Shown one piece after another: positions 15,241 to 16,306 of a stretch of 33,695 nt of DNA. The position numbers and the translations under genes were made by a program. The stretch comes from Bacteroidales bacterium. GTDB taxonomy: Bacteria; Bacteroidota; Bacteroidia; Bacteroidales; UBA12077. A model generated the notes under the pieces. It made no database searches. It saw only the letters and a program-made list of their open reading frames with translations, and was not told where the DNA came from. The stretch's first letter is position 1. Each line of letters starts with the position of its first letter. The stretch covers positions 1 through 33,695 of the forward strand of contig JAHOYT010000041.1 in assembly GCA_019038645.1 (NCBI GenBank). The letters are read 5' to 3'.

Positions 15241-15293
15241 GGGAGATTAGCTCAGCTGGTTCAGAGCATCCCGATTGCAGATCGGGAGGGTCA
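15241..15293 (+). pseudogene. tRNA-Val-like 5' fragment, unit 1
   Basis: The acceptor 5' strand GGGAGAT, D stem GCTC/GAGC and D loop are identical to those of the intact tRNA-Val at 15475. The anticodon arm then differs: TCCCGA (15269-15274), loop TTGCAGA, TCGGGA (15282-15287), a 6-bp stem instead of 5, with GCA in the anticodon position. The variable region GGGTCA follows, after which T arm and acceptor 3' strand are absent. It cannot fold into a complete tRNA, so it is called a fragment. Confidence 0.85.
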
Positions 15294-15357
15294 TTTGATC
15301 AACGTTCTTATTACAAAATTGAATAAAATACGCTTTATTAAGCAATAAATATAATTA

Positions 15358-15410
15358 GGGAGATTAGCTCAGCTGGTTCAGAGCATCCCGATTGCAGATC
15401 GGGAGGGTCA
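15358..15410 (+). pseudogene. tRNA-Val-like 5' fragment, unit 2
   Basis: An exact copy of the fragment at 15241-15293, with the same lengthened anticodon stem and the same loss of T arm and acceptor 3' strand. It is in the same orientation and lies directly upstream of the intact tRNA-Val, in the same presumed transcript. In such a transcript, RNase P cleavage at 15475 would release the functional tRNA from these leader units. Confidence 0.85.
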
Positions 15411-15474
15411 TTTGATCAACGTTCTTATTACAAAATTGAATAAAATACGCTTTATTAAGCAATAAATATAATTA

Positions 15475-15549
15475 GGGAGATTAGCTCAGCTGGTTCAGAG
15501 CACCTGCCTTACAAGCAGGGGGTCACTGGTTCGAATCCAGTATCTCCCA
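15475..15549 (+). tRNA. tRNA-Val (anticodon TAC)
   Basis: A complete cloverleaf of 75 nt including the discriminator. The acceptor GGGAGAT pairs with ATCTCCC, D stem GCTC with GAGC, anticodon stem CCTGC with GCAGG around loop CTTACAA (anticodon TAC, valine). The variable loop is GGGTC, and T arm ACTGG/CCAGT encloses TTCGAAT. Discriminator A is at 15549, and the full CCA is not encoded. Its 5' half is shared with the two upstream repeat units and its 3' two-thirds with the two downstream modules. Confidence 0.97.
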
Positions 15550-15557
15550 CAAGAAAC

Positions 15558-15590
15558 AAAGGATTAGACAATTAGTTTAATCCTTTTTTT
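15558..15590 (+). terminator. Terminator after tRNA-Val
   Basis: AAAGGATTA (15558-15566) pairs with TAATCCTTT (15578-15586) around an 11-nt loop and is followed by a T run to 15590. It lies between tRNA-Val and the first GIY-YIG ORF, whose ATG is at 15599. Confidence 0.8.
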
Positions 15591-15598
15591 ATACGAAA

Positions 15599-15850
15599 AT
15601 GTTTTACTTTTATATATTATATTCCACTACAACAGACCAATTTTATATTGGTCATACTTCTGATCTTCAAGGAAGACTTAAAAAACATAATTCCAATCAT
15701 AAAGGGTTTACAGGGAAAGTTAATGATTGGGGAATTGTATATAAGGAATCTTATCAAACAAAGGAATTAGCATACGCAAGAGAACGTCAGGTTAAAAAAT
15801 GGAAAAGCAAGGTCAGGATTCAGGAATTAATTATAAAATATGATTCATAG
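15599..15850 (+). CDS. Small GIY-YIG nuclease family protein, intact copy
   Basis: An 83-residue stand-alone GIY-YIG domain. YIL at residues 5-7 and [15 protein letters not shown] at 16-30 hold the GIY-YIG pair, with the conserved Arg at 26. [15 protein letters not shown] (about residues 55-69) holds the conserved Glu, residue 62. There is no DNA-binding or UvrC-like extra domain. The end of the gene runs into a tRNA-Val-like fragment: its last bases GATTCATAG correspond to the D loop and D stem GGTTCAGAG of tRNA-Val, and the G-to-T change in that stretch makes the TAG stop. The target and role are unknown. The link to tRNA pieces suggests a small selfish or tRNA-associated nuclease element. 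A broken copy lies 121 bp downstream. Confidence 0.9.
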
Positions 15851-15937
15851 CATCCCGACTGGTAAGTCGGGAGGGTCACTGGTTCGAACTTTTCTCATGA
15901 ACGAAACGAAGTGGAGTGAATAATCCAGTATCTCCCA
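15844..15937 (+). pseudogene. tRNA-Val-like 3' fragment, module 1, with T-loop insertion
   Basis: It begins at the D loop (TTCATAGC) inside the stop region of the GIY-YIG gene and ends with ATCTCCC plus discriminator A. The anticodon arm is lengthened: TCCCGAC (15853-15859), loop TGGTAA, GTCGGGA (15866-15872). The T arm starts normally (ACTGGTTCGAA, 15878-15888) but is split by a 35-nt insertion (15889-15923) before TCCAGT resumes. No 5' acceptor strand exists, so it cannot be a functional tRNA. Confidence 0.85.
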
Positions 15938-15939
15938 CA

Positions 15940-15967
15940 AAACCTCGGCAAATGCTGGGGTTTCTTT
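15940..15967 (+). terminator. Terminator after GIY-YIG/tRNA module 1
   Basis: AAACCTCGGC (15940-15949) pairs with GCTGGGGTTT (15954-15963) around loop AAAT, with two G-T pairs, followed by CTTTG. It directly follows the tRNA-like 3' end. Confidence 0.6.
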
Positions 15968-15971
15968 GTAT

Positions 15972-16229
15972 ATGGAGAAATATCTATTTTATATATTATA
16001 TTCATAAGCTATAGAAAAGTTCTATATTGGTCATACCTCTGATCTGCAAGAAAGATTGCGCAGGCATAATTCCAATCATAAAGGATTTACAGGAAAAGTT
16101 AATGATTGGGAAATTGTATATCAAGAATCTTATCAGACAAAAGAATTAGCATACGCAAGAGAACGTCAGGTCAAAAAATGGAAAAGTAAAGTTAGAATTC
16201 AGGAATTAATTATAAAGAATAGTTCATAG
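15972..16229 (+). pseudogene. GIY-YIG nuclease pseudogene (in-frame stop at codon 12)
   Basis: A second copy of the GIY-YIG gene. From the ATG at 15972 it reads MEKYLFYILYS and then a TAA stop at 16005-16007. The same frame continues as [20 protein letters not shown] and on to QELIIKNSS with a TAG at 16227-16229, closely matching the intact copy along its whole length. Only the nonsense codon blocks it; there is no frameshift. As in copy 1, the terminal AGTTCATAG is tRNA-derived, so the stop codon lies in the tRNA-like fragment. Reinitiation downstream is unlikely to give activity because the first half of the GIY-YIG motif would be missing. Confidence 0.88.
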
Positions 16230-16306
16230 CATCCCGACTGATAAGTCGGGAGGGTCACTGGTTCGAACTTTCTCATGAAGTGAAGCGAATAATCCAGTAT
16301 TTCCCA
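16223..16306 (+). pseudogene. tRNA-Val-like 3' fragment, module 2, with T-loop insertion
   Basis: Same layout as module 1. The D-loop start TTCATAGC overlaps the GIY-YIG stop. The lengthened anticodon arm is TCCCGAC (16232-16238), loop TGATAA, GTCGGGA (16245-16251). The T arm ACTGGTTCGAA is interrupted by 25 nt (16268-16292) before TCCAGT. The acceptor 3' strand is ATTTCCC, one base different from ATCTCCC of the intact tRNA. The insertion shares both ends (CTTTCTCATGAA at the start, GAATAA at the end) with that of module 1 but is 10 nt shorter. Confidence 0.85.

What the first reader, a model, noticed from the sequence alone, without database searches (positions are those of the whole stretch)
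15241..16306. tRNA-Val locus built into an amplified GIY-YIG / tRNA-fragment module array
One intact tRNA-Val is flanked upstream by two tRNA 5' fragments and downstream by two modules of the form GIY-YIG ORF, tRNA 3' fragment, terminator. Each ORF ends inside the tRNA-derived sequence, so nuclease gene and tRNA piece move as one unit. The same altered anticodon stem (TCCCGA..TCGGGA) occurs in both upstream and downstream fragments but not in the intact tRNA, which ties all the pieces to one element type. I propose a minimal mobile or selfish element: a stand-alone GIY-YIG nuclease that inserts at tRNA genes and carries tRNA segments for target restoration or recognition.
Basis: partly seen in the sequence, partly recalled or inferred. 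Interest (0 to 1): 0.8.

Follow-up and report, generated by a model that had tools for sequence, protein, structure and literature searches.

The report
Nuclease cassette nested in tRNA gene
A tiny DNA-cutting-enzyme gene appears to have inserted itself again and again into essential transfer-RNA genes of bacteria related to Bacteroides and Flavobacterium, splitting the old tRNA gene and leaving a complete replacement copy, which looks like an unrecognised family of selfish genes living in bacterial chromosomes.

Summary
It is no local oddity. Of 395 genomes of the phylum, 28 carry a close homologue. Of 61 partly overlapping ORF rows from three searches, 51 lie downstream of a tRNA. In a separate sample, 35 of 88 small GIY-YIG ORFs have tRNA sequence within 400 bp, against 0 of 16 UvrC controls. 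Fourteen tRNA amino-acid types occur, and nuclease lineages partly track them. Comparison with sister genomes indicates that the native tRNA-Val gene was split: its leader lies left of the first 5' piece and its terminator right of the last 3' piece, with a complete tRNA between. The two modules look like separate insertions. Best explanation: a chromosomal, free-standing GIY-YIG homing-type selfish gene that targets tRNA genes and uses tRNA halves as homology arms. It would work like phage T4 SegB but is not a recognisable relative. Cleavage and mobility are inferred. The TCCCGA...TCGGGA hairpin at the breaks is enriched (27 of 40 against 1 of 122) but unexplained.

The parts
15241..15293 (+). 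Native tRNA-Val 5' half (positions 1-28), then replaced anticodon arm TCCCGATTGCAGATCGGGA (15269-15287), then GGGTCA
   Evidence: upstream sequence 14987-15240 aligns to the locus of G007 that lacks the module and runs straight into this piece; coordinates
15294..15357 (+). New leader L2 (first copy), brought in with the insertion
   Evidence: not seen in front of the tRNA in the module-free loci of G007 and G008; identical second copy
15358..15474 (+). Second, identical copy of 5' half + hairpin + L2 (117-bp tandem duplication)
   Evidence: 100% identity over 117 bp
15475..15550 (+). Complete tRNA-Val(TAC), read as the replacement copy; only Val tRNA among the 30 read
15558..15590 (+). Terminator T3, not the native type (matches the one in G015)
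   Evidence: score 74 to G015; null 95% = 31, max 46
15599..15850 (+). ORF1, 83-aa GIY-YIG nuclease, active-site positions intact (Y5, Y16, G18, R26, E62)
   Evidence: PF01541 E=1.4e-16; invariant columns; fold model pLDDT 90; dN/dS of the four computable ORF1 comparisons 0.06-0.15
15853..15938 (+). tRNA 3' piece 1: arm TCCCGACTGGTAAGTCGGGA 15853-15872, T-loop insert 15889-15922, acceptor strand 15923-15938
15941..15967 (+). Terminator T2, of the type that precedes the ORF in G016 and the ORF remnant in G011
   Evidence: the G011 and G016 copies score 70 against each other; the window copy was matched by eye
15972..16229 (+). ORF2, GIY-YIG pseudogene (TAA at 16005-16007)
   Evidence: 83% identity, 1 TAA inside; dS 0.67 to ORF1
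16232..16307 (+). Native tRNA-Val 3' half: arm TCCCGACTGATAAGTCGGGA 16232-16251, T-loop insert 16268-16291, acceptor strand 16292-16307
16308..16360 (+). Native-type tRNA-Val terminator T0, displaced about 760 bp from the intact tRNA
   Evidence: aligns to the terminator of the module-free locus in G007, score 62 (null max 46) against 25 and 14 for the other two terminators

Best explanation
It is a chromosomal, free-standing homing-type selfish gene. SUPPORTED BY COMPARISON: the [leader-tRNA-terminator-ORF] segment sits inside a native tRNA-Val gene, the native 5' and 3' halves flank it, and a complete tRNA is kept; in the window this seems to have happened twice in succession. INFERRED: the 83-aa GIY-YIG nuclease cuts tRNA genes that lack the cassette, near the anticodon or T arm. 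The broken ends then pair with the tRNA halves that flank the cassette in a donor copy. Repair copies the cassette, and a functional tRNA, into the break. The tRNA halves thus serve as portable homology arms that could work in many species, because the tRNA is conserved. The same breaks, repaired between repeats, would amplify the units in tandem. The hairpin that replaces the arm in the leftover pieces would mark or protect the cut site. Related lineages do the same at other tRNAs.
For: Recurrence next to tRNAs: 51 of 61 ORF rows downstream of a tRNA named by ARAGORN (rows overlap), 35 of 88 in a family-wide sample against 0 of 16 UvrC (Fisher p=0.001). tRNA matches on both sides in 20 of the 88. 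Displaced flanks: native-type leader left of the first 5' piece and native-type terminator right of the last 3' piece. G016 shows the same: its distal 3' piece ends in ATCGCCC plus terminator T1, as the intact genes of G008 and G004 do, while its own intact tRNA is of the ATCTCCC type. Patchy presence: of 15 tRNA-Val loci read in the genus, 6 with the ORF, 4 with pieces or remnants only, 5 without. Nuclease lineages follow tRNA type: 30 changes of isotype on the tree against 53.8 on average in 200 shuffles (min 49). Purifying selection: dN/dS 0.05-0.33 in the 12 of 16 chosen pairs that could be computed. Precedent: T4 SegB, a GIY-YIG enzyme in a tRNA cluster, is inherited at high frequency and in T6 amplifies its tRNA locus by recombination (PMC2988022 and PMC13096335, passages and one section seen).
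Against: No cleavage, expression or transfer was tested. The intact tRNA should itself be a target in the carrier, and nothing here explains why it is spared. The protein is only a catalytic domain, with no obvious DNA-recognition module. Of the eight loci of the genus with 3' pieces, two (window, G016) show the displaced terminator; two (G006, G003) have the same terminator type before and after the module, as plain tandem duplication would give; three (G017, G004, G013) do not inform, and G011 shows only the travelling T2. The reference locus G007 is held for only 173 bp beyond its tRNA because the contig ends. The same test in the genus of G323 was inconclusive. Phages and plasmids held no homologue, so no vehicle between species is known. 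Hairpin positions differ between tRNA types, so one fixed cut site is not evident.
Confidence: 0.58

Rival explanations
1. A transposition-like or site-specific insertion system: the GIY-YIG enzyme is structure-selective and acts on hairpin- or cruciform-forming DNA (tRNA arms, intergenic palindromes), and the hairpins at the breaks are the ends of the element. Movement would not need long homology.
For: Hairpin TCCCG..CGGGA near the ORF end in 27 of 40 rows (two rows without tRNA context and one too short left out) against 1 of 122 and 1 of 116 distant windows and 0 of 16 UvrC flanks. Sister GIY-YIG clades sit in palindromic repeats: 38 of 52 ORFs without a nearby tRNA have flank repeats beyond the 99% null. 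Best structural matches include Slx1, a branched-DNA nuclease (Z 7.4). The palindrome is dispersed in the window's genome (11 sites).
Against: Across 395 genomes the 18-bp palindrome occurs in 6 of 28 ORF-bearing and 31 of 367 other genomes (p=0.036, not corrected for kinship), so it is no obligate partner. In the family-wide sample the motif follows only 10 of 35 tRNA-class ORFs. Fold similarity at Z about 7 shows no function.
Confidence: 0.18
2. Passenger model: tRNA loci are insertion hot spots, the nuclease is a host repair or recombination enzyme or an inert passenger, and the pieces arose by ordinary tandem duplication and unequal exchange.
For: The 117-bp upstream units are identical; G006, G003 and G466 have the same terminator type on both sides; tandem arrays without an ORF exist in the genus of G323.
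Against: ORF1 and ORF2 differ by dS 0.67 and have different terminators, so they are not recent duplicates. Nuclease lineages track tRNA type. UvrC, with the same domain, was not near tRNAs (0 of 16).
Confidence: 0.14
3. Toxin with RNA decoy: the enzyme cuts the tRNA (RNA), and the tRNA-like pieces are decoy or antitoxin RNAs with an uncleavable arm.
For: Pieces keep tRNA sequence but lose the natural arm; the nuclease lineages follow tRNA type.
Against: The pieces of the window lack one side of the acceptor stem and the 3' pieces carry T-loop inserts, so they should not fold as tRNAs; I recall no GIY-YIG enzyme that cuts RNA. Pieces with displaced native flanks are what insertion leaves.
Confidence: 0.04
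4. Domesticated function: a standing array gives the host dosage or recombination control of the tRNA locus, for example tRNA amplification under phage attack, as SegB does for phages.
For: SegB-driven amplification of tRNA-Tyr in phage T6 (PMC13096335, passages); the window lies beside AbiE and a type IIG restriction gene.
Against: Patchy and decaying copies within one genus; in the window the array holds one intact tRNA and four broken pieces.
Confidence: 0.06

Closest known systems
Phage T4/T6 SegB, free-standing GIY-YIG homing endonuclease (PMC2988022 passages; PMC13096335 passages and section 10)
   Same: GIY-YIG enzyme gene beside tRNA genes; association with many tRNA types (reported for phages); tandem amplification of the tRNA-nuclease unit
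   Different: 221 aa against 83 aa; no significant similarity (E=0.12); phage and not chromosome; no tRNA halves seen at T4 segB (repeats of 16-25 nt only); gene lies between tRNA genes, not inside one
Genomic islands that integrate in tRNA genes (tyrosine recombinase; recalled)
   Same: Insertion in a tRNA gene, restoration of the gene by element-borne sequence, displaced tRNA piece at the far end
   Different: No integrase in the unit; the unit is a few hundred bp; more than one layer stacked; the break lies in the anticodon arm
Group I intron homing endonucleases such as I-TevI, and introns in tRNA anticodon loops (recalled)
   Same: GIY-YIG fold (I-TevI catalytic domain Z 6.2); anticodon-loop position
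   Different: No group I intron among the Rfam matches in 15000-16600; the tRNA is replaced, not spliced
UPF0213 / COG2827 small GIY-YIG proteins (PDB 1zg2, 1ywl; the COG number is recalled)
   Same: Size and domain; nearest solved relatives by sequence (E 0.006) and Z 7.2
   Different: My one search for these names returned one unrelated listing, so no function and no tRNA link was found
REP sequences with RAYT transposases (recalled)
   Same: Nuclease gene embedded in dispersed palindromes, in the sister GIY-YIG clades
   Different: RAYTs are HUH enzymes (recalled); here GIY-YIG, and in this class the palindrome is a tRNA arm

Membership tests
GIY-YIG nuclease superfamily (PF01541) | Profile match over the whole domain | tested here: met
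   E=1.4e-16, profile 1-74 of 78
GIY-YIG nuclease superfamily (PF01541) | Conserved active-site residues | tested here: met
   Y5, Y16, G18, R26, E62 invariant in 15 sequences; their catalytic role is recalled knowledge
Free-standing homing endonuclease of the SegB type | Sequence relationship to SegB beyond the GIY-YIG motif | tested here: not met
   BLASTP E=0.12 over 19 residues
Free-standing homing endonuclease of the SegB type | Separate region after the catalytic domain, as in SegB | tested here: not met
   83 aa, domain covers 1-71; SegB is 221 aa with the domain at 3-71
Free-standing homing endonuclease of the SegB type | Gene placed among or beside tRNA genes | tested here: met
Free-standing homing endonuclease of the SegB type | Cuts alleles lacking the gene; preferential inheritance | not testable with these tools
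   needs enzyme and cross
Group I intron with homing endonuclease | Intron RNA around the ORF | tested here: not met
   no group I intron among the five Rfam matches with E up to 1 in 15000-16600
tRNA-integrating genomic island | Tyrosine or serine recombinase inside the unit | tested here: not met
   no other ORF of 60 aa or more overlaps 15241-16360; an integrase-family ORF lies 13 kb away
tRNA-integrating genomic island | tRNA restored and displaced tRNA piece at the far end | tested here: met
UPF0213 / COG2827 | Similarity to solved members | tested here: inconclusive
   phmmer E=0.006; Z 7.2, rmsd 5.4, 70 aligned
Structure-selective GIY-YIG nuclease (Slx1-like) | Acts on branched or hairpin DNA | not testable with these tools
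   fold match Z 7.4 only

The most novel reading that the evidence does not exclude
Bacteroidota chromosomes harbour a large, so far unnamed superfamily of minimal (about 80-aa) GIY-YIG selfish genes that colonise hairpin-forming DNA. One branch is split into lineages each dedicated to one tRNA gene, which they break, replace and flank with tRNA halves used as universal homology arms, so that an essential, conserved gene becomes the vehicle for spread between species. Other branches live in intergenic palindromic repeats, as a GIY-YIG counterpart of RAYT/REP systems.
Probability: 0.42. Interest if true: 0.86.

Novelty: new variant of a known kind. Interest (0 to 1): 0.74.

Why it matters
Homing endonucleases outside introns are, as far as I recall, known mainly from phages. 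A chromosomal family that targets many tRNA types would be a new reservoir of selfish genes that rewrite essential genes, a natural set of minimal tRNA-gene-specific nucleases, a source of tRNA fragments that confuse annotation, and a testable model for how a selfish gene survives by replacing what it breaks. It would also suggest a role for small GIY-YIG proteins whose function is unassigned.

Tried and rejected
(1) Common target CCTGC/GCAGG anticodon stem: suggested by Val, Arg, Pro and Asp, then dropped, because Met, Asn and Ser loci lack it. (2) Nuclease and dispersed palindrome as obligate partners: not supported (6 of 28 against 31 of 367). (3) Displacement of terminators in the genus of G323: inconclusive, because arrays are homogenised and my pattern missed fragments in G457 and G475 and took tandem intact genes in G465 for a fragment. 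Read by eye, G472 and G475 have a different last terminator; this is not counted. (4) Rfam on 20 loci, most of them without a nearby tRNA, reached no gathering score. (5) NCBIfam gave no name to three of the proteins; PADLOC gave only weak partial matches for ORF1. (6) No homologue in phages or plasmids at E 1e-5. (7) Printed contexts were cut; the loci not shown there are covered only by the table.

Rows dropped or set by hand; in L087 and L110 the nearest tRNA named by ARAGORN is itself a hairpin-bearing copy; an intact Val gene lies further upstream; 43 rows, of which I left out L129 and L136 (no tRNA context) and one had too little sequence; counting both as misses gives 27 of 42. 'both sides' includes L202, whose two best matches are different intact tRNAs; for L175, L190 and L228 the tRNA was found by BLAST alone; 47 rows of the first set (labels typed, some from fragments only: L088, L115, L127, L130, L137) plus 84 of the 88 sampled ORFs; L178, L234, L250 and L257 left out for length or stops. 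Five isotypes were set by hand for (L175, L190, L208, L228, L249) and two more for (L238, L245); the 16 pairs were chosen by me; several dS values exceed 1.5 and are near saturation.
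Full report
CHECK OF THE OBSERVATION. The window is a whole contig (G000:C41) of a 3.39-Mb genome. ORF1 is an 83-aa GIY-YIG protein. ORF2 is 83% identical but carries an in-frame TAA. The arm TCCCGA...TCGGGA replaces the anticodon arm in all four pieces but not in the intact gene. In both 3' pieces the T-loop also holds an insert of 34 or 24 bp. Related copies of that insert sequence lie at other places of the genome, some of them inside intergenic hairpins. It is the only Val tRNA among the 30 tRNAs whose anticodon was read, of 31 found.

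RECURRENCE. A search of species genomes returned 18 loci with homologues; by title they are Bacteroidota-type organisms and one Ignavibacteriales, except one 3.2-kb contig filed under Kuenenia. ARAGORN named a tRNA in 15 of the 18 loci, mostly Val(TAC), and Arg(TCT) in the three Flavobacterium loci. Among genomes related to the window 11 of 59 carry a match, and 28 of 395 in an even draw from the phylum, E up to 1e-15, the window's genome counted in both. Over the 61 ORF rows from the three searches plus the window, 51 have a tRNA named by ARAGORN upstream on the same strand within the fetched stretch, 33 to 1294 bp away. These rows overlap: L081 repeats L099, L082 repeats L102, and several are tandem copies; in L087 and L110 the nearest named tRNA is itself a hairpin-bearing copy with an intact Val gene further up. 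The tRNA type is not fixed: Val, Arg(TCT), Arg(ACG), Asp, Asn, Met, Ala. Where I could read them, the pieces after the ORF match the local tRNA type. Several ORFs end inside the tRNA-like sequence, for example ...GSEHPDQ* in L093.

WIDER SAMPLE AND CONTROL. To avoid choosing by similarity to the window I took PF01541 across 61 genomes. The listing is sorted by score and truncated; I used 28 of the 30 loci that came with it (one is the window, one had been used before) and 60 further small ORFs in listing order, one ORF per fetched stretch. Of these 88, 35 have a tRNA or tRNA match within 400 bp on the same strand, and 20 have matches on both sides. In 16 UvrC genes, which carry the same domain, none has. 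35 is a lower bound, since members of longer arrays (L208, L238, L245, L249) lie further from their tRNA. Two layouts exist: intact tRNA - ORF - 3' piece (as in the window), and 5' piece with an insert - ORF - intact tRNA (L209, L218, L222, L225, L240).

TREE. In a tree of 131 proteins (95 columns, 56 of 128 inner branches open) the label tRNA/no tRNA needs 6 changes against 39.2 on average when shuffled, 0 of 500 as low. The tRNA amino-acid label over 85 rows and 14 types needs 30 changes against a mean of 53.8 and a minimum of 49 in 200 shuffles; without Val, 24 against 40.7, minimum 36. Supported groups that join hosts of different families under one tRNA type include Asn (100/96), Ser (98/88) and Pro (98/87). 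The window genus itself holds Val-type and Met-type copies in separate parts of the tree. The fit is imperfect: Arg, Val, Asp and Asn each occur in several places, and shuffling does not control for host kinship.

INSERTION, NOT MERE DUPLICATION. In the genus of the window 15 tRNA-Val loci could be read: 6 with the ORF (G000, G003, G006, G010, G013, G016), 4 with pieces or remnants only (G004, G011, G015, G017), 5 without (G007, G008, G014, G018, G019; these five genomes also have no ORF match at 1e-15). Limits: beyond the tRNA G007 is held for 173 bp, G004 for 178, G014 for 94 and G010 for 358 before the contig ends, and in G018 and G019 the surroundings differ. The gene upstream of the tRNA in the window is of the Mur-ligase family (the name folC is recalled). 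Its end and the leader align with G007 up to and into the first 5' piece, and G007's terminator aligns after the last 3' piece (score 62; 25 after the intact tRNA, 14 after piece 1; null 95% 31, maximum 46). The terminator next to the intact tRNA is that of G015 (74). So the native tRNA gene was most likely split in two, and a complete tRNA stands between its halves. The two modules have different terminators, ORF1 and ORF2 differ by dS 0.67, and ORF2 is dead: the outer module is probably older, the inner one newer. G016 repeats the pattern: its last terminator resembles the one next to the tRNA in four sister genomes (G011, G008, G017, G004; 50-57; only G008 of these is free of remnants), its first does not (25); and its distal piece ends CTAGTATCGCCC, whereas its own intact tRNA ends CCAGTATCTCCC. 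ATCGCCC is shared with G004, G008, G013 and G014, CTAG with G013 and G014. Against this: G006 and G003 have the same terminator type before and after the module; G017, G004 and G013 are uninformative; G011 shows a remnant whose T2 matches that of G016 (70). A like test in the genus of G323 was inconclusive, though in the 29 loci printed of 30 genomes that genus shows loci without pieces, ORF arrays and arrays of pieces without any ORF.

THE HAIRPIN. TCCCG...CGGGA lies within -40..+130 of the ORF end in 27 of 40 rows (27 of 42 if the two rows that I left out count as misses), against 1 of 122 and 1 of 116 distant windows and 0 of 16 UvrC flanks. In the family-wide sample the figures are 10 of 35 tRNA-class and 7 of 53 other ORFs, so the exact motif is typical of the window's lineage rather than universal; other inserts take its place elsewhere. 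The 18-bp form TCCCGATANNTATCGGGA occurs at 11 sites of the window genome (up to 1 mismatch; 0 for the control). Across 395 genomes it is found in 6 of 28 ORF carriers and 31 of 367 others (p = 0.036 uncorrected for kinship), so it is not a needed partner. Its role is unexplained; a destroyed cut site or an element end are my two candidates.

THE ENZYME. Active-site positions are invariant in 15 homologues. Of 16 pairs that I chose, 12 gave dN/dS of 0.05-0.33 (several with dS near saturation) and 4 could not be computed. The model (pLDDT 90) matches Slx1, UPF0213 and I-TevI among solved structures (Z 7.4, 7.2, 6.2), which supports the fold and nothing more.

SISTER CLASS. Of the 53 other small ORFs, 52 had long enough flanks and 38 show direct or inverted flank repeats beyond the 99% level of swapped flanks; a few of these belong to tRNA arrays. 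By eye many flanks are palindromic repeats such as GTCATTCTGAG...CGAAGAATCC (21 loci printed). Two such genes are in the window's own genome (L076, L077), and the pattern GTCATTCTGAGCNNNNCGAAGAATCT has 17 matches there (up to 2 mismatches, 0 for the control), one of them the arm beside the gene in L077.

LITERATURE. Searches over the open PubMed Central library listed no title or abstract that describes chromosomal GIY-YIG genes with tRNA pieces; one search showed 20 of 129 papers and 12 of 167. This says nothing about subscription journals or preprints. The nearest is SegB. In T4 it lies between tRNA-Arg and tRNA-Ile and is inherited at high frequency (PMC2988022, passages); in T6 it drives recombination-dependent tandem amplification of its tRNA locus, and phage homologues are enriched near tRNAs of many isotypes (PMC13096335, passages and section 10). 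T4 segB itself lies beside tRNA genes without tRNA halves, and the protein is not recognisably related.

VERDICT. Well supported by comparison: recurrent, tRNA-type-linked placement of a small GIY-YIG gene in or against tRNA genes, with tRNA pieces left over and, in the window and G016, replacement of the broken gene. Inferred: that the nuclease causes it by homing, with tRNA halves as homology arms. It works like a free-standing homing endonuclease; it is not a member of the SegB family by the tests made.

Noticed in passing
L076 (G000:C19:39500-42000) and L077 (G000:C43:1-2000): Two other small GIY-YIG genes of the window genome sit between the arms of intergenic palindromes (GTCATTCCGG...CCGGAATGAC; GTCATTCTGAG...), one with a nested TCCCGATATTTATCGGGA hairpin beside the stop codon.
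   Followed up: partly
L075 1870-1970 (G000:C4 near 60425): tRNA-Pro(TGG) of the window genome is followed by a decayed 3' piece with a T-loop insert of the same kind, without an ORF.
   Followed up: partly
L278, L290, L292, L300, L301 (genus of G323): Arrays or single copies of [hairpin tRNA piece + terminator + spacer] with no nuclease ORF in the stretch printed, as non-autonomous derivatives would look.
   Followed up: no
L052 (G000:C32), about 1185 bp from the tRNA-Met start: A perfect 36-nt copy of tRNA-Met positions 32-67 lies 1.2 kb from the gene, possibly the far end of an integrated element.
   Followed up: no
L007 and L008 (G000:C86): The T-loop insert sequence recurs inside what looks like another repeat (...CTCATGAACGAAGTGAGTAA...CAATGACCAGTGATCAAT...).
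   Followed up: no
window 16403-21840: AbiEi/AbiEii pair and a type IIG restriction-methyltransferase directly downstream of the module.
   Followed up: partly
window 29090-29752: A phage-integrase-family ORF of 220 aa, shorter than I would expect of an intact integrase, lies 13 kb from the tRNA.
   Followed up: no
G352:C1:2945594-2947087: Five tandem GIY-YIG units at 315-bp spacing, of the tRNA-Asp type, in a single-contig genome.
   Followed up: no
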